From a virus, in IMG/VR virus record IMGVR_UViG_3300046467_002171, positions 1-55,982 of that record: a stretch of 55,982 nucleotides of DNA; one strand, written 5' to 3'. Below the pieces are notes generated by a model. That model saw nothing but the letters and a program-made list of their open reading frames with translations, was not told where the DNA came from and made no database searches. Positions 13,177 through 55,982 of this stretch are shown here, piece after piece; positions within the stretch are counted from its first letter, which is position 1; every line of letters begins with the position of its first letter. A program made the translations under genes and the position numbers.

Positions 13177-13370
13177 ACTCCTTTGATATTGTTCAGTTCA
13201 TACAACGGGCGATTAAGGAACGAAAGACGATTGTTCTGGATGTTTTGGAAAATAATGGTATAAAATCTATAGAACAATACCGAGAACTTATGGGTGAATT
13301 AAACGCCCTTAATTTTGTTTTACAGGAACTCTCGGGCCTGCTAGAAAAACAGGAACAATTAGATGACTGA
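13173..13370 (+). CDS. Small helical protein of unknown function
   Basis: The protein has 65 residues, overlapping the oxygenase stop and the following GroES-like start. The sequence is Glu/Leu/Gln-rich (ELNALNFVLQELSGLLEKQE) and probably one or two helices forming a coiled coil. Short proteins of this type occur at the same position in related marine phages, but I know no function. A structural or assembly accessory is a guess from neighbours. Confidence 0.7.
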   Translation: MNSFDIVQFIQRAIKERKTIVLDVLENNGIKSIEQYRELMGELNALNFVLQELSGLLEKQEQLDD

Positions 13371-13782
13371 AGCTGCTCAAAATGTAGAAAACCTGTACGT
13401 TAAAGAAGATGGACGCGTACTGGACCCAACTCTTCTTGACAATACTCTTTTGGAAAGAATGCCCAACCCTACTGGTTGGAGGCTACTTATTCTTCCTTAC
13501 CGTGGAAAAGGTACGACCGACGGAGGTATTCACCTACCGGACAAAATCCTTGAAGAAGGCCAAATACAAACGGTTGTCGCCTATGTCATAAAACAGGGTC
13601 CTTTAGCTTATAGGGATAAAGAAAAATTTCCTGACGGAGCTTGGTGCAAGGAAAAGGACTGGATCATTCTTGCTAGGTACGCGGGGTCCAGACTTCGAAT
13701 AGAAGGGGGCGAGGTTCGCATCATTAATGATGATGAAGTTTTAGCCACTATTCTTGACCCAGATGACATTATTAATCTTTAA
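13363..13782 (+). CDS. GroES-like co-chaperonin (Cpn10 family)
   Basis: The protein has 139 residues, longer than bacterial GroES (about 97) because of an N-terminal extension of about 30 residues. The Cpn10 barrel is visible: PTGWRLLILPYRGKGTTDGG then IHLPDK (mobile-loop region), VVAYVIKQGPLAY, WIILARYAGSRLRI and IINDDEVLATI. Phage co-chaperonins such as T4 Gp31 replace host GroES so the host GroEL can fold a large capsid protein. No GroEL is encoded here, so it would pair with the host chaperonin. Its place just before scaffold and capsid genes fits that job. Confidence 0.9.
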   Translation: MTEAAQNVENLYVKEDGRVLDPTLLDNTLLERMPNPTGWRLLILPYRGKGTTDGGIHLPDKILEEGQIQTVVAYVIKQGPLAYRDKEKFPDGAWCKEKDWIILARYAGSRLRIEGGEVRIINDDEVLATILDPDDIINL

Positions 13783-45274: not shown

Positions 45275-47175
45275 AACCTATCACCAAACTTCAAATGACA
45301 ATGTTTCCCCCTAAAAGCGAGTGGGTGCCCCCGAGTGAGCTTCCAGATCTCACGTCAGCATCCGAAATTGCTATCGACCTGGAAACAAAAGACCCTGGCT
45401 TGAAAACGCACGGCCCCGGCTGGCCCACCGGCAACGGGGAAGTAGTGGGCTATGCCATAGCCACCGCTTCGTGGAACGGATACGTGCCGATCCGCCACGT
45501 GGGCGGCGGCAATCTGGATGAGCGCATCGTGCACCGCTGGATTAAAAAAATCTGCGAATGCCCTGCGGATAAAATTTTTCACAACGCCGCATATGACGTG
45601 GGCTTTTTGAAACACGAGGGCTTCACAGTGAAGGGCAAGCTCATCGACACGATGATCACCGCCAGCTTGCTCGATGAAAACCGCTTTTCCTATTCGCTGA
45701 ACGCACTGGCCTATGACTACCTGTCCCAAACTAAAAGCGAACGCCTGCTCACCGAAGCCGCACAGGAATTTGGCCTAGACCCAAAAGCAGAGTTGTATCT
45801 GCTTCCCGCCATGTATGTCGGTCCCTACGGCGAGGCCGATGCACGATTGACCCTCGATCTCTGGCACTGTTTCAAACTTGAACTGAGGAAGCAGGATTTG
45901 TCCGCTATCTGGGAATTGGAAATGGCGTTGCTGCCGGGCCTGATCGAAATGACGTGGAAAGGTATTCGCGTCGATCTTGACCGCGCTGAACGGACCAAAC
46001 AGGAACTCATCAAACAGGAAAAGGCCGCGCTCCGAAAGATCAAACAACTTGCCGGGAAAGATGTCGAAATCTGGGCCGCGCAATCAGTCGCTTCGGCCTT
46101 TGAAAAGGTGGGCCTGTCCTACCCAAAAACGGAACAGGGGGCACCGTCTTTCACACGCGGCTTTCTGTCAGAACACTCTCACGAATTACCCGTTCTTATC
46201 ATGCAAGCGCGGGAATTGAATAAAACGCATTCGGCCTTCGTCGGCAACATTCTTAAATATGTGGGGAAAGATGGCCGCATTCACGCGCATATCAATCAAA
46301 ATCGCAGCGATTCCGGCGGAACGGTGTCCGGTCGCCTAAGCTATCAGAACCCGAACATTCAGCAGTTGCCTGCACGGAACCCGACACTCGGCCCCATGAT
46401 CAGAAGCCTGTTCCTGCCCGAGGAAGGGCAACAGTGGGCGGCGATCGACTACTCGCAACAGGAACCACGGATCTTGGTGCACTACGCCAAGGCCTACGGC
46501 GATTCAAAAAATACGGAATTGAAGGGCTTGTCCGAATTTCTGGAAGGCTATACCAACGATCCAAAAATGGACTTCCACAGCCTCGTCGCCGAAATGGCTG
46601 AAATCCCACGAAAGCAAGCAAAGCTCATTAATCTTGCCATGATGTACGGAATGGGCGTCAACAAGCTGGCGGAACAACTCGACATTGACAAAGCCGAAGC
46701 CAAGACCCTCACCGACCGCTACCACGAGCGCGTACCGTTCGTTCGCCAGTTGATGCAGGGGGTAAGCCGCCGATTGAACGACCCACGCTCCAGCGGCTCT
46801 ATACGCAGCCTACGTGGACGAAAATGCCGCTTCGACCTGTGGGAGCCAGACTCGTTTGAGATGCACAAGGCTCTGCCGCGAGAAGAAGCCATAGCCGAAT
46901 ACGGCGGAACAACGCGACTCGTTCGCGCATACACCTACAAGAGCCTCAATAGATTGATCCAAGCCAGCGCTGCGGACATGTGCAAGCAGAGCATGGTTGA
47001 TTTGTTTCAGATCGGTGTGGTGCCTCTTGTTCAGATCCACGACGAACTGTGTTTTTCGGTTGAGAACCGGGAGGAGGCGGAAAAATACGCGGAAATTATG
47101 GAAAACGCGGTGCCCTTGGAAATTCCCAACCGCTGCGATATTGAAATCGGCCCCAGTTGGGGCGAAGCCTCTTGA
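45271..47175 (+). CDS. polA: Family A DNA polymerase (3'-5' exonuclease and polymerase)
   Basis: The protein has 634 residues, with no 5'-nuclease domain, as in T7-like PolA. The exonuclease shows IDLETKDP (D36, E38), HNAAYDVGFLKHEGF and YGEADARLTLD. Polymerase motif A is AAIDYSQQEPRIL (D393), motif B is RKQAKLINLAMMYGMG, and motif C is QIHDELCFSV (H590, D591). The residue equivalent to E. coli Phe762 is Leu455 (codon 46633-46635), a variant reported to dominate marine PolA-bearing phages. It copies the genome with the primase and helicases just upstream; the start overlaps the helicase stop by four bases. Confidence 0.97.
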   Translation: MKPITKLQMTMFPPKSEWVPPSELPDLTSASEIAIDLETKDPGLKTHGPGWPTGNGEVVGYAIATASWNGYVPIRHVGGGNLDERIVHRWIKKICECPADKIFHNAAYDVGFLKHEGFTVKGKLIDTMITASLLDENRFSYSLNALAYDYLSQTKSERLLTEAAQEFGLDPKAELYLLPAMYVGPYGEADARLTLDLWHCFKLELRKQDLSAIWELEMALLPGLIEMTWKGIRVDLDRAERTKQELIKQEKAALRKIKQLAGKDVEIWAAQSVASAFEKVGLSYPKTEQGAPSFTRGFLSEHSHELPVLIMQARELNKTHSAFVGNILKYVGKDGRIHAHINQNRSDSGGTVSGRLSYQNPNIQQLPARNPTLGPMIRSLFLPEEGQQWAAIDYSQQEPRILVHYAKAYGDSKNTELKGLSEFLEGYTNDPKMDFHSLVAEMAEIPRKQAKLINLAMMYGMGVNKLAEQLDIDKAEAKTLTDRYHERVPFVRQLMQGVSRRLNDPRSSGSIRSLRGRKCRFDLWEPDSFEMHKALPREEAIAEYGGTTRLVRAYTYKSLNRLIQASAADMCKQSMVDLFQIGVVPLVQIHDELCFSVENREEAEKYAEIMENAVPLEIPNRCDIEIGPSWGEAS

Positions 47176-47199
47176 TTTTATTGGAGAATCCTATACAAT
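47172..47199 (+). promoter_or_regulatory. Sigma70-like promoter before the RHH gene
   Basis: TTGATT (47172-47177) and TACAAT (47194-47199) are 16 bp apart. The -10 lies in ATCCTATACAATCC, a word that recurs before other early genes (53119, with variants at 48608, 52525 and 54410). It overlaps the polA stop and would drive 47236-47439. Confidence 0.55.
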
Positions 47200-47235
47200 C
47201 CCATCACTTCACTAGCCCAATCGGAGAACCTAAGA

Positions 47236-47439
47236 ATGGACACGACGAAATGGAAGTCGGTGCTTGTCACCCGCCCCATGTACGAGGAAATTTCCGCCGT
47301 CGCTCGCATCGAAGCTCGATCAATATCGGGGCAGTTGCGACTTTCTTGGGAAGCGTGGAAGCGGGAAAATCTGTCGAAAAAAGACCAGAAGTTTTTGAAG
47401 GAGGAAATTGTCGCTCGGCGGGACGCAGAGAGCGCCTAG
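47236..47439 (+). CDS. Ribbon-helix-helix-like DNA-binding protein
   Basis: The protein has 67 residues. TKWKSVLVTRPMYEEISAVA followed by RIEARSISGQLRLSWEAW fits the Arc/CopG ribbon-helix-helix pattern: a short beta strand, a helix, a turn with RSISGQ and a second helix. Such dimers bind DNA operators and often act as repressors or antitoxins; no toxin gene is adjacent. GGAG ten bases upstream serves as ribosome site. It has its own promoter with a TCCTATAC word that recurs before other early genes, so autoregulation and control of early promoters is an attractive inference. Confidence 0.72.
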   Translation: MDTTKWKSVLVTRPMYEEISAVARIEARSISGQLRLSWEAWKRENLSKKDQKFLKEEIVARRDAESA

Positions 47440-47440
47440 C

Positions 47441-47452
47441 GTTTCACGTGAA
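47441..47452. promoter_or_regulatory. Degenerate parS-like half-palindrome
   Basis: GTTTCACGTGAA matches twelve contiguous core positions of the parS consensus TGTTTCACGTGAAACA; the flanks differ. It begins two bases after the ribbon-helix-helix gene and abuts the 55-bp repeat copy at 47452. Binding, if any, would be weaker than at 1741-1756. Confidence 0.4.
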
Positions 47453-47506
47453 GGCAAGCCGAGATAGAACCGGCGCGTCAGCGGACTCGGCTTTAACCGC
47501 TCGCGC
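47452..47506. repeat. Copy 2 of the 55-bp hairpin-forming repeat
   Basis: This copy is in intergenic DNA. It matches 8191-8245 at 49 of 55 positions. GCGCGTCAGCGG and CCGCTCGCGC can form a stem, and the complementary strand ends in a T-arm-like GCCGG-TTCTATC-TCGGC fold. A full tRNA cannot be built: no anticodon stem and a poor acceptor. Its origin and function are unknown. Confidence 0.8.
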
Positions 47507-47714
47507 CACTTTGTATAATGCCGTAAAGGGAAACGGCGAACACCGACCCAGAAGCTATCCACATGTAAATTTTTCCCCAAACTTTTCTGCTTCGATAGCG
47601 CTCGTTCGATTTCCGCTGATCCTGCATGATATACTCCATTTTATTTCCTTTGCTTGTTTATCTATGGGACAATGTAAGATACGCTGAAGCCTAAGTCAAA
47701 AGGAAACAAAAATT
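47507..47714. promoter_or_regulatory. Intergenic region with a possible promoter
   Basis: No gene is supported. TATACT at 47630-47635 within ATGATATACTCC is a good -10 but its -35 is poor. CTATCCACA at about 47554 is one mismatch from a DnaA box. The next small gene follows 80 bases downstream. Confidence 0.35.
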
Positions 47715-47873
47715 ATGTCGAACATTGTAAGCATTCCTCTTCCACCGGAAACGATAGAATGGGTCGCCGCTGTCCGAATAATCGAAGCGGCTTTGGTAGA
47801 ATTTTCGGACAGCCTGTCCAAAGAGGACGCGGTTGCGTTGGAACGCGCGTGGAGCCGGATACAGCAAGGATGA
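47715..47873 (+). CDS. Small early protein, unknown
   Basis: This 52-residue gene encodes SNIVSIPLPPETIEWVAAVR then IIEAALVEFSDSLSKEDA and ERAWSRIQQG. It is helical and acidic with no recognised domain. Its TGA overlaps an ATG (ATGA) at 47870, and AAGGA near its end provides the ribosome site for the next ATG at 47876, so the two genes are probably coupled. Small early phage proteins often bind host factors; nothing here shows which. Confidence 0.55.
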   Translation: MSNIVSIPLPPETIEWVAAVRIIEAALVEFSDSLSKEDAVALERAWSRIQQG

Positions 47874-47875
47874 GC

Positions 47876-48175
47876 ATGTCTTCTGAAGCCCAAAACAAAA
47901 TTAACGAGTTTGAAAAAGCGGCAGCATTAACCGAAAAGCTCGTTCAAAAATTTTACGACGAGGAGTTGACATTTGATGCCGCGATGGGCGGCGCGTTGAC
48001 CGTGATGCTACAGTGCCTTTTGCGCGGAACGTCGGATCAAACGCACGCGCTCGGGATCTTAGGGTCTGCCGTGAGCATCGCCGTCGCTTCGAACATGAGC
48101 GCCGAAGAAGGAACGCCGAACGAGGAAGTTTTAGAGTCCGTTTTAACGGGCTCTGAGGAAGGGTTGCTTCACTGA
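47876..48175 (+). CDS. Small early protein, unknown
   Basis: The protein has 99 residues from 47876, which is five bases after AAGGA; the ATG at 47870 would add two residues. The sequence SSEAQNKINEFEKAAALTEK leads into a helical FDAAMGGALTVMLQCLL and GILGSAVSIAVASNMSAEEG, and the end is acidic. The two moderately hydrophobic helices may pack as a soluble helical bundle and are too polar to be sure membrane segments. A strong terminator follows. Function not recognised. Confidence 0.6.
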   Translation: MSSEAQNKINEFEKAAALTEKLVQKFYDEELTFDAAMGGALTVMLQCLLRGTSDQTHALGILGSAVSIAVASNMSAEEGTPNEEVLESVLTGSEEGLLH

Positions 48176-48231
48176 TCCTCCATACTACGCGCACATTCCC
48201 GGCTGATTTTCCCCTTTCAACGCCGGATTTT

Positions 48232-48258
48232 ACCGGGCCTTGCGCCCGGTTTTTTTTT
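48232..48258 (+). terminator. Strong rho-independent terminator
   Basis: ACCGGGC (48232-48238) and GCCCGGT (48244-48250) pair perfectly around CTTGC and are followed by at least eight T residues. It ends the transcript of the two small genes 47715-48175. The stem is the same as in the terminator at 54353-54379. Confidence 0.92.
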
Positions 48259-48269
48259 ACGGAATTAAA

Positions 48270-48566
48270 TCATCCACCTTCCTCGGGTATCCACCTGCAT
48301 GGGAGTTCGAAATGCCGCTGCCGCTGTGGGTGTTTAGCGTCGTATGCCGCCCTTCTATTGATTTCCTCAAAAGCTGCCTTCGGCCCCAAAGTCACTACCA
48401 TCATGTATCGCTGCATATGTTTGATTTCCTCCCGCTCAGAAAAATCTTCCAGCTCACCAGTCACCGGGTCTCTCCTGCCGATCGGCATCCCGTGTCGATA
48501 CTCTTTTGCTAATTTTTCCCAATCCTTCATATCGGTTCCTTCAATTTTATCTGCTGGCCATTCCAT
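48270..48566 (-). CDS. Small leftward early protein, unknown
   Basis: The protein has 98 residues, with AGGAG eight bases upstream on the complementary strand, which supports the leftward reading over the open frames on the other strand. It begins MEWPADKIEGTDMKDWEKLA and contains YRHGMPIGRRDPVTGELEDF and AAFEEINRRAAYD. It is strongly charged and probably helical, typical of a small cytoplasmic early protein. It diverges from the gene at 48663, sharing a 97-bp regulatory gap. No domain is recognised. Confidence 0.65.
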   Translation of the reverse strand: MEWPADKIEGTDMKDWEKLAKEYRHGMPIGRRDPVTGELEDFSEREEIKHMQRYMMVVTLGPKAAFEEINRRAAYDAKHPQRQRHFELPCRWIPEEGG

Positions 48567-48599
48567 TATTTATTCTCCTATAAAATTTTCCGCACGCAG

Positions 48600-48628
48600 T
48601 TGACCGGTCCCATACCCTCCTGTAAAAT
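48600..48628 (+). promoter_or_regulatory. Sigma70-like promoter with CATACC repeats
   Basis: TTGACC (48600-48605) and TAAAAT (48623-48628) are exactly 17 bp apart. CATACC occurs at 48611-48616 in the spacer and again at 48631-48636 just downstream, positions suited to an operator. It would drive 48663-49597. Confidence 0.72.
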
Positions 48629-48662
48629 AGCATACCGGAAAAAAACCTCAAAGGAAAAAACG

Positions 48663-48905
48663 ATGCATGGGTTAGACCTTTACGAGAGAGATAACGAGGC
48701 AGAAAAGTCCAGTGCAGATGAAGATAAAAGGCCCGGCGGCGAAGCCGCGCAAGAGCCACAGCAATTTCTCGTGGTGTGGCGCAGCTTCGCCAGCTTAGAA
48801 CTGCACTTCGAAGCGACTTATACGCGCCCGGAAGCCGAACACATCGCTCGGAATTTATTGATCAACCACCGCCCCTCACGGATCTACAAAGTCAATTTGC
48901 CGTGA
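48663..48905 (+). CDS. Small early protein, unknown
   Basis: The protein has 80 residues with AAAGGAA as ribosome site. The first 30 residues are acidic and disordered. The rest, QFLVVWRSFASLELHFEATY then TRPEAEHIARNLLINHRPSR and IYKVNLP, looks like a compact alpha-beta fold. It is the first gene after a good promoter and is followed within 40 bp by two more co-directional genes. I recognise no family. Confidence 0.62.
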   Translation: MHGLDLYERDNEAEKSSADEDKRPGGEAAQEPQQFLVVWRSFASLELHFEATYTRPEAEHIARNLLINHRPSRIYKVNLP

Positions 48906-48944
48906 AAACAAAACGGGGCAGCGAAAAAACAAAGGAAATACATT

Positions 48945-49196
48945 ATGCGTAAAGAATTTTGCAGAGTGAAAGGCCGACGTACTGGGACCGATCGTAGACC
49001 GTTCGAGGCGGTCCTCAGTCGTTCGGCTGTGTTGTACGCAATCCGCAATAATGACGGAAGCCTGTATGCGCTGATTGACGGGCCCCTGGGGGAGGTAAAT
49101 CTGACCCCGCTGACTTACGCCCAAGACGGGGAAGAGCGGGAATTTTTCTTCGAGTGGCTGACGGAAAAATGTAAGTCGGACGCAGGAGCAAAGTGA
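48945..49196 (+). CDS. Small early protein, unknown
   Basis: The protein has 83 residues with AAAGGAAATA as ribosome site. Basic start RKEFCRVKGRRTGTDRRPFE, then beta-rich AVLYAIRNNDGSLYALIDG and GEVNLTPLTY, and a helical end with two charged segments. The pattern could be a small nucleic-acid-binding protein, but no family is recognised. Its TGA overlaps the next ATG, implying coupled translation with the glycosylase-like gene. Confidence 0.62.
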   Translation: MRKEFCRVKGRRTGTDRRPFEAVLSRSAVLYAIRNNDGSLYALIDGPLGEVNLTPLTYAQDGEEREFFFEWLTEKCKSDAGAK

Positions 49197-49597
49197 TGCA
49201 AACCTTCTTACCCTATGCAGATTTGCGAGACAGCGTGGTCTGCTTAGACAATAAACGGCTTGGTAAACAGCGCGTCGAGTGTCTGCAAATATTGAACGTA
49301 CTCGAAGGGCGGCGCGACGGCTGGAAAAATCATCCAGCGGTCAAAATGTGGACCGGCCACACCGAGGCGCTGCACCTGTATAAGGACATCTGTATAACAG
49401 AATGGATAGACCGGGGATTTAATAACACGATGATCCTAACCTCCAAGAAGGGCCCTGAACCAAACCTGCCCGACTGGTGGAACGGTGAAATCCACGCTAC
49501 ACACCGTAGCAATCTACTGCGTAAGGATGCAGACCACTACGGTCAATTCGGTTGGGCAGAGGCGAACGACCTGCCTTATTACTGGCCCGTTAAATAG
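49196..49597 (+). CDS. Pyr_excise / MSMEG_6728-type DNA repair-like protein
   Basis: The protein has 133 residues from the ATG at 49196 (AGGAG eight bases upstream). QTFLPYADLRDSVVCLDNKR followed by LGKQRVECLQILNVLEG, NHPAVKMWTGHTEALHLYKD and HATHRSNLLRKDADHYGQFG matches the MSMEG_6728/Pyr_excise family, which is related to pyrimidine-dimer glycosylases. Conserved H/R/K residues are present, but the catalytic mechanism in this subfamily is not firmly established. A role in repairing UV-damaged phage DNA is plausible for a virus of sunlit water. Confidence 0.78.
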   Translation: MQTFLPYADLRDSVVCLDNKRLGKQRVECLQILNVLEGRRDGWKNHPAVKMWTGHTEALHLYKDICITEWIDRGFNNTMILTSKKGPEPNLPDWWNGEIHATHRSNLLRKDADHYGQFGWAEANDLPYYWPVK

Positions 49598-49609
49598 CTG
49601 ACGGAAGAT

Positions 49610-49638
49610 AAAAAAACCCGACCCCGTGAAGGGTCGGG
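49610..49638 (-). terminator. Rho-independent terminator of the leftward GHKL gene
   Basis: CCCGACCC (49617-49624) and GGGTCGGG (49631-49638) form a perfect 8-bp stem around six bases. Reading leftward it is followed by seven T residues (A run at 49610-49616), so it terminates 49649-51136. In the rightward direction there is no T run. Confidence 0.9.
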
Positions 49639-49648
49639 CTTAAAGGCA

Positions 49649-51136
49649 CTAGATCTTTTCCAGACCCAGATGCCACGCCAGCTTGGCTCCTAAACTTCCC
49701 ACCGTATCCGCAAAATTCTCGGACAAGTGATCGCTTTCATGGAAATGCGCGAACTCATGGAGCATTAACTCTACCTGCACTTTTCTGTTTTCACGCCGGA
49801 ACCATTGTCGTCCCAGCGCGTCAACGTTCAGGTGCAGACTCCGCTTGGAGTACGCCGCCATGAAGGCGTTGTCGGTTTTGACCAACACAACCCCAGTTGA
49901 GCATCCTAGCAGTAGCTCGTGCAGCCGCTGAGCAAACGCTACCGTGTCGCGTTGGTCGTCCGTCCAATTGCCCGGATCCACGGTTTCCGCTTCGGGCGCA
50001 TTCGGATCATTCGAATACGCGTCGTAGCTGGTCGGGAACTTCTGCCCCGCAGCCGGAATGGCGGACGCCGCCTTGGCGTTCCCCCATTGGCCGCCGGTCA
50101 AAGTGCCCCCGGTGATAACCGTGTAGCCGTTCGCCGCCGCGACCCGGTTCGCTTCGGGGTTGGACGGGTCATAAGCGACCCGCTTCTCCCCAAACCTCGC
50201 TGTCATCACCCGCTCCGTCACTGCATCCGTGCAGCGCTCGTCCGATGAAGCTTCCGTCACCCACGACTCTGAAAAGTCCTCGGTGTCGAGCAAGTGCGCC
50301 GCCGCGTTCAGAACCGCGACCCGTAGTTCCGCCAAGTAGGCGGGCGTCACGTTGTCGCGATCCGCGTTCAACGGCACTTTTTGCTGCACGTTCACGTGCC
50401 AGCGACCTTCGGTCTCAACGACCGGGATCCCGAGTTCGTAAATGTGCGGCACCTCATCCGCCGTCGGCTCGTAAAGCTCCACCGTCGTAGCACGGCGGCT
50501 TCGCTTTAGATTGCCTTCGGCGTCGGCAATGACTGTCGGCAGCGTCAGTTCAAGGGTGCTGACCGGAGAACGTGAGTTTAACGTCACGATCCGATCTTGC
50601 ACCTTCAGCGTCGTTGCGATTCCCGGCGGACACAGCAGGCTATCGAAAAATATTTCGAACGCCCGAATATCCGCGTCGGTCAACGGTAACGTCGCCTCGA
50701 ACAGACTACCCGACTCCCGGCGGCTGCGGAGGTTGTGACGACCCTTAGCGTCAAATGCGACGCCGCCGGTCACCGTCACGATCCGCGCCTCCCGGCACAT
50801 GGACAGAACGAGCTTCTCACCAAGATTGAACCGCCCTCGCAGCGTTGGATCGGCCTTTTTGGCTGACGGCGCGTAGAGAGTGTAGGCGTGGGTCAAGTCG
50901 GACCAACCGTCGGGATCGTCGTCGACTACGGTAACGACCGCGAGGCCGCGACGTAGCTTCTCGATCTCAACAGTAACGTTGGTCACGTTTTGATCCCAAG
51001 CGTTTTGGATCAACTCGGCAAGCACGAACGATCGGGGCCGGTCGGCCATCAATTGAGACAGACCTTTCCTGTCAACGTCGAACCAAGCTCGTTGTGCTGT
51101 TTTTGGCACAGCACGGCCTTTTGCCTTGTAAGGCAT
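49649..51136 (-). CDS. GHKL ATPase fused to an HExxH metallopeptidase-like domain
   Basis: The protein has 495 residues from the ATG at 51136, chosen because GGGGAG lies about nine bases upstream and MPYKAKGRAVPKT is the natural start. The GHKL fold is seen at the N terminus: N-box ELIQNAWDQ (E41, N45, D48), G1 VVDDDPDGW (71-78) and G2 RGRFNLGEKLV (100-110). The middle is beta-rich with KVPLNADRDNV near residue 265. The C terminus has HEFAH (460-464) and SENFADTVG (472-480), the HExxH and ExxAD metal-ligand pattern. I recall similar phage proteins of unknown role. Leftward, separately terminated, so independently regulated. Possible ATP-driven protease or anti-defence factor. Confidence 0.85.
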   Translation of the reverse strand: MPYKAKGRAVPKTAQRAWFDVDRKGLSQLMADRPRSFVLAELIQNAWDQNVTNVTVEIEKLRRGLAVVTVVDDDPDGWSDLTHAYTLYAPSAKKADPTLRGRFNLGEKLVLSMCREARIVTVTGGVAFDAKGRHNLRSRRESGSLFEATLPLTDADIRAFEIFFDSLLCPPGIATTLKVQDRIVTLNSRSPVSTLELTLPTVIADAEGNLKRSRRATTVELYEPTADEVPHIYELGIPVVETEGRWHVNVQQKVPLNADRDNVTPAYLAELRVAVLNAAAHLLDTEDFSESWVTEASSDERCTDAVTERVMTARFGEKRVAYDPSNPEANRVAAANGYTVITGGTLTGGQWGNAKAASAIPAAGQKFPTSYDAYSNDPNAPEAETVDPGNWTDDQRDTVAFAQRLHELLLGCSTGVVLVKTDNAFMAAYSKRSLHLNVDALGRQWFRRENRKVQVELMLHEFAHFHESDHLSENFADTVGSLGAKLAWHLGLEKI

Positions 51137-51572
51137 AAGCGCTTCTCCCCTTTTGTTAAAGAACACATTGCGACCGAGATAGCCGCTCCCATATTATCCC
51201 ATAGATAGGGTTTTGGCTCAATGGGCGCGTAAGTCTTTGATTTAAAAGAGGTTTCAGGAATTGGGGTTTTCGGGTCACGGAACAAGGAACACGATTTACT
51301 ATATATACGTTTCAAATAGTTTTTTTTTATTTTTCTAAAAATATGCCGTTACCTCCGTTACCAGTGTTACTTTAGGTGTTTTTTATATATAAACCAATAA
51401 CTTAGTGGTAACAAAATAGAGCAAAGTAAGGTGTTACCTATTAGACCAATAAAGTTACTCTACCTTAATCAGGAAAATACCTTAGTACGATCTGAGTGAG
51501 TTTTTTTTTATTTTTTATTCAGAACGTATATATAGTGTTTCCTATTTTTTCGGCGTGTGGCAAAATTCGGGC
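51137..51572. other. AT-rich non-coding region with GTTACC iterons and T tracts
   Basis: No gene is supported. From about 51240 to 51550 the DNA is far richer in A/T than its surroundings. GTTACC or its complement GGTAAC occurs at about 51347, 51356, 51405 and 51436; near-matches GTTACT lie between. ACCAATAA occurs at about 51392 and 51446. Two T9-A-T5/6 tracts lie at about 51321-51335 and 51501-51516. Possible replication origin or regulatory region between divergent genes. Confidence 0.55.
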
Positions 51573-54428: not shown

Positions 54429-54480
54429 TGAGGGCCGTCGTGTATAGGTGTTCGCGTGTTTATTAATAAAGGGGTCAACA

Positions 54481-55272
54481 ATGATTAAAACAGTAGTTAA
54501 CAGTAGATCAAGTAAAACCGCCGGGTGTGATATTACATATCGCGCCGGGGTTCGCGACGTTTTCGCGACGTGCCCGGATACTTGTAGCCTAAAGCCCGCT
54601 AATAGCACCGGAACCGGCGAGATTGATCACGAGTATCTGCGCGCGATGCGCGCGGCGGTACCGCGCGGCGGTATCGCGTTCGGGTATTCCCATTTTGATT
54701 TGTTGCGCTATCGCTGGCGCACGGGCGAGACCGTGATTAACTATTCCACGGACGGGTTGATCGATCTCGATCATGCGCTCCGCGCGGATATGCTCAACCG
54801 GTTACACGGTGAGCCGCGTCCGGTGGTTGTCACGGTGCCTGAAAATTATTTTTCGGACGGTAAACAATGGCGGGATCACGACGGGATCAAGATTGTTAAT
54901 TGCCCGGCTAATCATATGCGCGTCAACGCAATGCGCGTCACGTGCGGCGGCGGCGTACTACCCAGCGGCGAGCGTACGGCGGCGTGCGGGAACGGTAGAC
55001 CTTTATGCGCGCGCGGCGATCGCGATTACGTGATTGCTTTCCCGGTGCACGGTTCGAGTAAACGCGCGGCGGCGGATCCGGATAAACCGGGCGGATGCTA
55101 CGCCGAGCACCACCACGTGCGGCGGCATGGGGAAGCCACGCGCGCGCAAGCTGCCACGATCGACACGGATGGCGAACGGTTAACTGAGTTCGCGCGCACG
55201 CTACCGCGTGGTTCGATTCTCCGCCATCACATAGTCGGCGACGTGGGGCTCGACCTGGGGGCGCTAATTTAG
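54481..55272 (+). CDS. Cysteine-rich protein of plasmid/phage type
   Basis: The protein has 263 residues from the ATG at 54481 (AAAGGGG nine bases upstream). Cysteines occur in ATCPDTCSL (about 30-36), IVNCPAN, VTCGGG, ACGNGRPLCARGDRDYVIAF and GGCYAEHHHV, arranged as metal-binding pairs with nearby His. PRGGIAFGYSHFDLLRY and INYSTDGLIDLD precede them. I recall a plasmid-borne cysteine-rich family of this kind (possibly the one named DUF7227), not verified. Function unknown; zinc or iron-sulfur binding likely. It has very GC-rich codons, like the DUF932 gene beside it. Confidence 0.68.
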   Translation: MIKTVVNSRSSKTAGCDITYRAGVRDVFATCPDTCSLKPANSTGTGEIDHEYLRAMRAAVPRGGIAFGYSHFDLLRYRWRTGETVINYSTDGLIDLDHALRADMLNRLHGEPRPVVVTVPENYFSDGKQWRDHDGIKIVNCPANHMRVNAMRVTCGGGVLPSGERTAACGNGRPLCARGDRDYVIAFPVHGSSKRAAADPDKPGGCYAEHHHVRRHGEATRAQAATIDTDGERLTEFARTLPRGSILRHHIVGDVGLDLGALI

Positions 55273-55325: not shown

Positions 55326-55748
55326 GCCTGCGATATCGCCAGGCGGCGCGCTCGAGGTCCGGATCCGGGGGTGCAATGGTATGGGTCAAGGTCCGATCGT
55401 TGCTTAGATCGCATTCTGAGGGGTCCTAATCCGGGATCCAGCGGCGGCGGCGTCAGTTAATGCGGGATCGGCGAGCGGCAGCTCGAGGGAAGCCCGGCGG
55501 CGGTGTCAGTTAATGCGGGATCGGCGGCGGACACTATTTGACCGCTCGGGTTGTGCATAACCCGTTTGCGACCGGAAAATCCTATAGCACCCAATCGGAC
55601 AAAAAGGGCCCTTTTCTGTTGCGCCCGGATCTGCGTCAATTGTGCATAACCTGTTAGCGGCGGCGGCGACCTGGTGGTGTCCGTAATACTAGGACCGGGC
55701 CGGTGGCCGTGGCGTATGCAAAATGCTACCGGGCGCGTGCACCTTGGA
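55326..55748. other. Non-coding region with DnaA boxes and 22-bp direct repeats
   Basis: No gene is supported; the open frames are compositional. TGTGCATAA, the complement of the DnaA box TTATGCACA, occurs at 55552-55560 and 55641-55649. A 22-bp direct repeat starting GTCAGTTAATGCGGGATC lies at 55452-55473 and 55505-55526, each preceded by a GGCGGCGG run. It directly precedes the tandem array. Candidate replication origin. Confidence 0.6.
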
Positions 55749-55939
55749 CACCTGGCCGGTGGCACCTGGCACCTGGCACCTGCACCTGGCACCTGCACCT
55801 GCACCAGGCCGGTGGCACCGGGCACCTGCACCTGGCACCTGCACCTGGCCGGTGCCACCTGGCACCTGCACCTGCACCTGCACCTGGCCGGTGGCACCTG
55901 GCACCTGCACCTGGCCGGTGGCACCTGGCCGGTGGCACC
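55749..55939. repeat. Right end of the GC-rich tandem array
   Basis: The array is made of CACCTG, GGCACC and GGCCGGTGGCACC words in irregular tandem order. From 55827 it is the same sequence as positions 1-152 apart from a missing 39-bp unit, and the shared flank continues to the window end (195 equals 55982). GCCGGTGG occurs several times. It may be a packaging, replication or recombination site; the copy difference may come from assembly or real variation. Confidence 0.93.
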
Positions 55940-55982
55940 GGATCCGCGTCGCGTTTCGCTCGGACCGCGCACCGGGTCGCGT

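What the first reader, a model, noticed from the sequence alone, without database searches (positions are those of the whole stretch)
49649..51136. GHKL ATPase fused to an HExxH metallopeptidase-like end
An N-terminal GHKL nucleotide-binding site (ELIQNAWDQ, DDDPDGW, GRFNLGEK) and a C-terminal HEFAH...SENFAD metal site occur in one 495-residue protein. The gene runs against its neighbours, with its own ribosome site and terminator. GHKL proteins appear in Hsp90-, MutL- and MORC-like defence systems; an HExxH end suggests ATP-gated proteolysis. I recall similar uncharacterised phage proteins but no described activity. Best candidate here for a new host-takeover or anti-defence enzyme.
Basis: partly seen in the sequence, partly recalled or inferred. 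Interest (0 to 1): 0.85.

Follow-up and report, generated by a model that had tools for sequence, protein, structure and literature searches.

The report
Phage ATP-clamp protein with protease tail
A spare-part phage gene encodes an uncharacterised protein that joins an Hsp90/MutL-like ATP-driven clamp to a small zinc-protease domain with the same metal-site spacing as the DNA-repair protease Wss1; it is shared by hundreds of viruses, and if it works as built it would be a new kind of ATP-controlled protease.

Summary
Window 49649-51136 (-) encodes 495 aa with an intact GHKL ATP site and a C-terminal HExxH. One detail is corrected: the third metal ligand is His470 (HEFAH-x5-H), not SENFAD. The spacing H460/H464/H470 plus E461 equals that of the solved yeast Wss1 zinc site.

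It belongs to a large family for which no description was found: 206 viral contigs, 29 genome loci, several plasmids. In 107 non-redundant members E41, N45, G77, K108, Q252, R260 and H464 are invariant; H460, E461 and H470 are 96-99% conserved. AlphaFold gives pLDDT 90 overall and 97 for the C-terminal domain. Foldseek matches the N-terminal half to Hsp90/MutL/MORC and the C-terminal domain to minigluzincins, IrrE, SPRTN and Wss1.

The gene is accessory: opposite strand, own terminator, 59% GC against 50%, dN/dS about 0.12, and missing from the same PolA-TerS interval in 20 related phages. No conserved partner was found.

Best reading: an ATP-gated, Wss1-type zinc protease acting on a host protein. 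Neither activity nor target is shown; the anti-defence role remains inference. Cyanobacterial plasmid relatives sit between DisA_N and CHAT genes.

The parts
49649..51136 (-). GHKL-zincin gene, 495 aa (P0001)
   Evidence: dN/dS 0.11-0.14 against three close orthologues
50597..51088 (-). GHKL (Bergerat-fold) ATP-binding domain, residues ~17-180
   Evidence: Pfam HATPase_c_3 2.5e-6; AF2 model and Foldseek
50993..51016 (-). N-box ELIQNAWD (E41 predicted general base, N45 Mg ligand)
   Evidence: E41, N45, D48 invariant in 107 members; roles from established GHKL knowledge
50906..50923 (-). DDDPDG (D72-G77), adenine-binding loop equivalent
   Evidence: D72 and G77 invariant
50813..50839 (-). RGRFNLGEK (R100-K108), G2 box / ATP-lid end
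   Evidence: G101 and K108 invariant; low pLDDT around 101-105 fits a mobile lid
50237..50596 (-). transducer (S5-like / Hsp90-middle-like) domain, residues ~181-300
   Evidence: AF2 secondary structure; Foldseek alignments to Hsp90, MutL and MORC span the N-terminal half
50357..50383 (-). QKVPLNADR (Q252-R260), predicted gamma-phosphate sensor
   Evidence: Q252 and R260 invariant, K253 K/R in all 107; likeness to the Hsp90 catalytic-Arg loop recalled, not tested
49982..50236 (-). alpha/beta linker region, residues 301-385, with a low-confidence loop near 371-380
   Evidence: AF2; no family match
49652..49981 (-). C-terminal Wss1/minigluzincin-like zincin domain, residues 386-495
   Evidence: AF2 pLDDT 97.5; Foldseek jannalysin, selecase, PprI, SPRTN, Wss1; WLM is the most frequent Pfam match among members (30 of 98)
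49745..49759 (-). HEFAH (H460, E461, H464) zinc site
   Evidence: 98/99/100% conserved
49727..49729 (-). H470, third zinc ligand
   Evidence: 96% conserved; Wss1 ligands H115/H119/H125 have the same spacing (PMC5557861)
51145..51150 (-). ribosome-binding site GGGGAG
   Evidence: sequence
51193..51221 (-). promoter-like site TTGAGC-17-GATAAT with TG extension
   Evidence: consensus match only
49614..49641 (-). intrinsic terminator, 12-pair stem and T run

Best explanation
The gene is an accessory phage gene for an ATP-gated, Wss1-type zinc protease. SHOWN by sequence or model: an N-terminal GHKL ATP site with a transducer domain, and a C-terminal minigluzincin domain with an intact three-His plus Glu zinc site, both under strong constraint; the gene is optional in its own phage group and is scattered over unrelated viruses. 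INFERRED: ATP binding closes the GHKL lid and brings two subunits together, as in Hsp90, MutL and MORC. Q252/K253/R260 in the transducer sense the gamma-phosphate. The closing movement places or opens the C-terminal zincin on a protein substrate, which E461 and zinc hydrolyse; ATP hydrolysis (E41) resets the clamp. INFERRED more weakly: the substrate is a host protein, and cutting it disables a host defence or frees host machinery, because the gene behaves as cargo that many unrelated phages carry alone, without a conserved partner.
For: Both active sites are nearly invariant across 107 members from viruses, plasmids and genomes. Confident model: pLDDT 90.4 full length, 97.5 for the C-terminal domain. 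Foldseek: N-terminal half to HtpG/Hsp90, MutL, MORC3 and GyrB; C-terminal domain to jannalysin, selecase, PprI, SPRTN and Wss1 (best E 0.0019, so support rests on several related folds plus the motif, not on one score). The zinc spacing +4/+10 is that of Wss1 H115/H119/H125 with E116, and N437 (94 of 101) may match Wss1 Asn-83 near the zinc. WLM, YgjP and SprT are among the most frequent Pfam matches of members. Purifying selection in every domain. Accessory status: absent from the PolA-TerS interval of 20 related phages, which carry other genes there; atypical GC and its own terminator. No conserved neighbour in 103 loci.
Against: No activity has been measured. Two of 107 members have lost the metal site (L009, L085). 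In related families the zincin is missing (4MG gp176, Ab18 ORF34) or reads EExxH (YuA gp29), so the wider group can work without proteolysis. ArdC, a plasmid anti-restriction protein with a comparable domain, works without its metalloprotease activity (PMC7213743). Relative positions of the two halves are less certain (pTM 0.77). No defence-gene association was found in the viral loci.
Confidence: 0.5

Rival explanations
1. DNA-clamp protease. The GHKL part works as a MutL/MORC/topoisomerase-type ATP clamp around DNA, and the Wss1/SPRTN-like tail removes proteins bound or crosslinked to phage DNA (repair, roadblock or nucleoid-protein removal).
For: Wss1 and SPRTN, the best-known relatives of the tail domain, are DNA-activated proteases that digest DNA-protein crosslinks. 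MutL is the best profile match of the GHKL half among the references tried and MORC2/3 are high in Foldseek. The gene next door encodes a pyrimidine-dimer glycosylase.
Against: The protein is acidic overall (net -11) and the transducer very acidic (-11; family median -7), which does not suggest a DNA clamp, though net charge is a crude test. The glycosylase neighbour is not conserved: it was not found next to the gene even in the close relatives.
Confidence: 0.2
2. Defence or superinfection-exclusion factor. The protein protects the infected cell or prophage from other phages, as a sensor ATPase with a suicide or effector protease; phages carry it as cargo.
For: Picosynechococcus plasmids carry a full-length relative between a DisA_N-domain gene and a CHAT-protease gene, in the same order in two strains. 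The Rhodovastum plasmid copy lies about 3 kb from a SIR2-HerA anti-phage pair. Moron-like layout.
Against: No PADLOC family matches significantly. There is no conserved partner in viral loci. Most carriers look like virulent or very large phages rather than prophages, though this was not tested.
Confidence: 0.15
3. GHKL ATPase with a structural or regulatory zinc domain: an rIIA-like factor in which the HExxH domain binds metal or a partner but does not cut.
For: In related phage families the domain is absent or has EExxH. RIIA proteins are frequent fold matches of the N-terminal half in the viral library. ArdC precedent.
Against: The catalytic Glu is 99% conserved in this family, which a structural zinc site would not need. 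There is no detectable profile relation to T4 rIIA beyond the GHKL part.
Confidence: 0.13

Closest known systems
Wss1 / WLM domain and SPRTN (SprT) DNA-protein-crosslink proteases
   Same: Zincin fold; HExxHx5H zinc site with the same spacing as Wss1; WLM is the most frequent Pfam match of members (30 of 98).
   Different: This protein has an N-terminal GHKL ATPase instead of ubiquitin, SUMO or p97-binding parts. The window protein itself does not reach the WLM threshold.
Minigluzincins (jannalysin/selecase, abylysin)
   Same: Top Foldseek hits of the tail; minimal about 110-residue zincin.
   Different: Those are free-standing small enzymes; by established knowledge their third ligand is Glu, here it is His.
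GHKL ATPases: Hsp90/HtpG, MutL, MORC, sacsin
   Same: Bergerat fold, N-box, G-boxes, lid, transducer; Foldseek and Pfam matches.
   Different: No HSP90 (PF00183) or MutL (PF01119) family match; no CW domain. None of these is fused to a zinc protease.
T4 rIIA-type phage proteins
   Same: Phage GHKL ATPase with a variable C-terminal part, proposed as poorly understood counter-defence (PMC7824862); fold matches.
   Different: Sequence relation limited to the GHKL core; no rIIB partner seen; different C-terminal domain.
phrog_6077 and phrog_8203 (phage proteins of unknown function)
   Same: Full-length profile relation of this family to the phrog_6077 group (E 2.6e-9), including PLNxDR and HExxH, and of the phrog_8203 group to the phrog_6077 group (E 3e-9).
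   Different: Direct comparison of this family with the phrog_8203 group is not significant. In those families the zinc motif is often lost (4MG gp176, Ab18 ORF34) or altered to EExxH (YuA gp29).
ArdC antirestriction proteins
   Same: Mobile-element protein with a SPRTN/IrrE-like metalloprotease tail.
   Different: N-terminal ssDNA-binding domain rather than an ATPase; proteolysis not needed for its effect.

Membership tests
GHKL / HATPase superfamily | N-box ExxxN, G1 and G2 boxes, Bergerat fold | tested here: met
   the G1 box is DDxPxG rather than DxGxG
Zincin (HExxH) metallopeptidases | HExxH on the active-site helix within a zincin fold, third ligand downstream | tested here: met
   metal binding itself not testable
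WLM / Wss1 family (PF08325) | HExxHx5H zinc site | tested here: met
   H460/H464/H470 against Wss1 H115/H119/H125; x5 spacing in 86 of 101 members
WLM / Wss1 family (PF08325) | score above the Pfam WLM threshold | tested here: not met
   window protein has no WLM match; members only weak (best 1.9e-5)
Hsp90 | HSP90 family (PF00183) match | tested here: not met
   no match; A3 against HtpG alignment aligns only the GHKL core, E 7e-4
MutL | DNA_mis_repair transducer domain (PF01119) | tested here: not met
   no match; A3 against MutL aligns residues 36-195 only, E 6e-6
MORC | MORC S5 domain plus CW zinc finger | tested here: not met
   no CW match; fold similarity of the ATPase region only
T4 rIIA | homology to rIIA along its length; rIIB partner gene | tested here: not met
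   GHKL core only, E 0.0016; no conserved neighbour
ATP-dependent protease (functional class) | nucleotide-dependent proteolysis | not testable with these tools
   needs biochemistry
Anti-defence proteins | restores phage growth on a defended host | not testable with these tools
   needs plaque assays; genomic context is only suggestive

The most novel reading that the evidence does not exclude
The family is the first known class of GHKL-gated proteases: an Hsp90/MutL-type clamp whose ATP cycle switches a built-in Wss1-like protease. Phages spread it as a stand-alone counter-host weapon, and cyanobacteria use it inside a cyclic-dinucleotide (DisA_N)-CHAT signalling operon.
Probability: 0.3. 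Interest if true: 0.87.

Novelty: new variant of a known kind. Interest (0 to 1): 0.62.

Why it matters
The known ATP-dependent proteases are, to established knowledge, built on AAA+ engines. A GHKL clamp fused to a zinc protease would be a different way to couple ATP to proteolysis. The family is common in environmental viruses (206 related contigs in IMG/VR), yet in about 50,000 phage records only one uncultured entry encodes a convincing relative, which would explain why it has no name. Two separate active sites with invariant residues make the idea directly testable by point mutants, and a lab cyanobacterium (Picosynechococcus PCC 7002) carries a relative. If the target is a defence protein, the target itself could reveal an unknown defence.

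Tried and rejected
(1) Chance HExxH: rejected by conservation. (2) SENFAD as the third metal site: rejected, H470 is the conserved residue. (3) Membership in Hsp90, MutL, MORC or rIIA: rejected at profile level. A first hhalign run used a wrong alignment mode and is void; it was repeated. (4) Known defence family: PADLOC gave only E 0.04. (5) Conserved operon partner in phages: none beyond scattered genes in 8 or fewer of 103 loci. Two neighbour clusters proved to be related GHKL proteins. (6) Literature: eight searches for such a fusion found no description; the nearest is the rIIA remark in PMC7824862. Only open-access full text is held, so this is not proof of absence.

Full report
OBSERVATION. 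The ORF at 49649-51136 (-) is real. It has 495 codons from ATG 51136, a GGGGAG ribosome site 8 nt upstream, a 12-pair terminator directly after the stop and a promoter-like site 57 nt upstream of the ATG. The neighbouring genes run the other way: a Pyr_excise glycosylase gene on one side and a weak Terminase_2 (TerS) match on the other. Against close orthologues dN/dS is 0.11-0.14, and every domain is constrained. GC is 59% against 50% for the rest of the window.

FAMILY. Searches with the protein and its alignments found 206 related viral contigs (best 80 kept), 29 genome loci and six plasmid records, but only one convincing match among 50,697 phage records, from an uncultured 485-kb genome. 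In 107 non-redundant members E41, N45, D48, G77, G101, K108, R215, E234, G236, P238, Q252, R260 and H464 are invariant; H460 is 98%, E461 99% and H470 96% conserved. Only L009 and L085 have clearly lost the metal site; L126 and L127 are frame-broken or cut off. The spacing between HExxH and the third His is 5 in 86 of 101 members and 3-8 in most others.

FOLD. AlphaFold2 with 101 homologues gives mean pLDDT 90.4 and pTM 0.77; the least certain parts are the N-terminal tail, the predicted ATP lid and a linker loop. Foldseek places the N-terminal half with HtpG/Hsp90, MutL, MORC and GyrB and, among viral models, with RIIA proteins after two unnamed close relatives. The C-terminal 110 residues fold alone at pLDDT 97.5; the best solved matches are jannalysin and selecase (minigluzincins), PprI/IrrE, SPRTN and Wss1. 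No match passes E 0.001, but most of the leading ones (seven of the first eight distinct rows) are zincins of the same gluzincin group. By sequence, WLM is the most frequent Pfam match among members (30 of 98; DUF4932 10, YgjP 7, SprT 4), and a profile search of the PDB finds the zinc protease myroilysin at E 0.0015. The crystal structure of yeast Wss1 has zinc held by His115, His119 and His125 with Glu116 as catalytic residue (PMC5557861). The present protein has His460, His464, His470 and Glu461, the identical spacing, and a conserved Asn437 that may correspond to Wss1 Asn83 (correspondence inferred).

MECHANISM. Shown: two constrained active sites and their folds. Inferred: ATP-driven closure of the GHKL-transducer clamp, sensed through Q252, K253 and R260, positions or opens the zincin on a protein substrate. 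The resemblance of PLNxDRD to the Hsp90 catalytic-arginine loop is recalled, not tested; sequence profiles align only the GHKL core with HtpG. Whether DNA is involved is open: the tail's relatives are DNA-activated, but this protein is acidic.

BIOLOGY. In the window's own clade the gene always sits between PolA and TerS, on the opposite strand. In 20 related phages that have both PolA (54-70%) and TerS (45-57%) in reach, the gene is absent and the interval holds other accessory genes, including apparent MT-A70-type methyltransferases (by motif). No other gene accompanies it in more than 8 of 103 loci. It therefore behaves as stand-alone cargo. In Picosynechococcus plasmids a full-length relative (profile E 1e-38) lies between a DisA_N-domain gene and a CHAT-protease gene, in the same order in two strains, which hints at a signalling or conflict role on the cellular side. 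Tree labels are mixed: viral, genome and plasmid members interleave.

WIDER SUPERFAMILY. Five loci carry a second, distantly related GHKL-HExxH protein (phrog_6077 group) and four carry a GHKL protein ending in EExxH (phrog_8203 group). The phrog_6077 group aligns with this family along the whole length (E 2.6e-9), and the phrog_8203 group aligns with the phrog_6077 group (E 3e-9) but not significantly with this family directly. Culturable phages have members: 4MG gp176 and Ab18 ORF34 lack the zinc domain, while YuA gp29 and Synechococcus phage Ssp-JY42 have EExxH. Both groups are listed as unknown function in PHROGs.

NOVELTY. The parts are known kinds; eight searches of open-access papers found no description of this combination. 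The nearest published remark is that rIIA-type GHKL proteins with variable C-terminal domains are poorly understood counter-defence candidates in jumbo phages, and separately that jumbo phages carry SprT-like and ArdC-like metallopeptidases (PMC7824862). ArdC is a caution: its metalloprotease activity is dispensable for antirestriction (PMC7213743). Verdict: a real, widespread and undescribed architecture, with an ATP-gated protease as the most likely mechanism and a counter-host role as the most likely but unproven use.

Noticed in passing
L112:6017-7357(-), L041:5504-6883, L043:6085-7401, L037:1586-2947(-), L083:2831-4138: A second, diverged GHKL plus HExxH protein (phrog_6077 group) encoded near the family gene in five loci.
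   Followed up: partly
L028:7241-8680, L031:10313-11740, L039:9762-11207, L104:4816-6336: A third GHKL protein (phrog_8203 group, also YuA gp29) whose C-terminus reads EExxH...D..RD.Q[DN]F instead of HExxH: a changed, perhaps non-catalytic zincin.
   Followed up: partly
L014:7424-13895 and L015:7431-12708: Picosynechococcus plasmid gene order DisA_N protein, GHKL-zincin protein, CHAT protein, close to sigma-70 and DUF1822 genes: a possible undescribed signalling or conflict operon.
   Followed up: partly
window 47175-51555 and the matching interval in L159-L230: The stretch between PolA and TerS is a variable accessory region across this marine phage group, with different cargo in different members (apparent MT-A70 methyltransferases, hydrolase-like and lipase-like proteins by eye).
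   Followed up: partly
window 13363-13782 (+): By eye, a GroES-like co-chaperonin in the structural gene region; not searched.
   Followed up: no
window 55457-55972: GC-rich tandem-repeat-like stretch at the contig end, read as repetitive ORFs on the - strand.
   Followed up: no
window 54448-55272 (+): Protein with the uncharacterised domain DUF7227.
   Followed up: no
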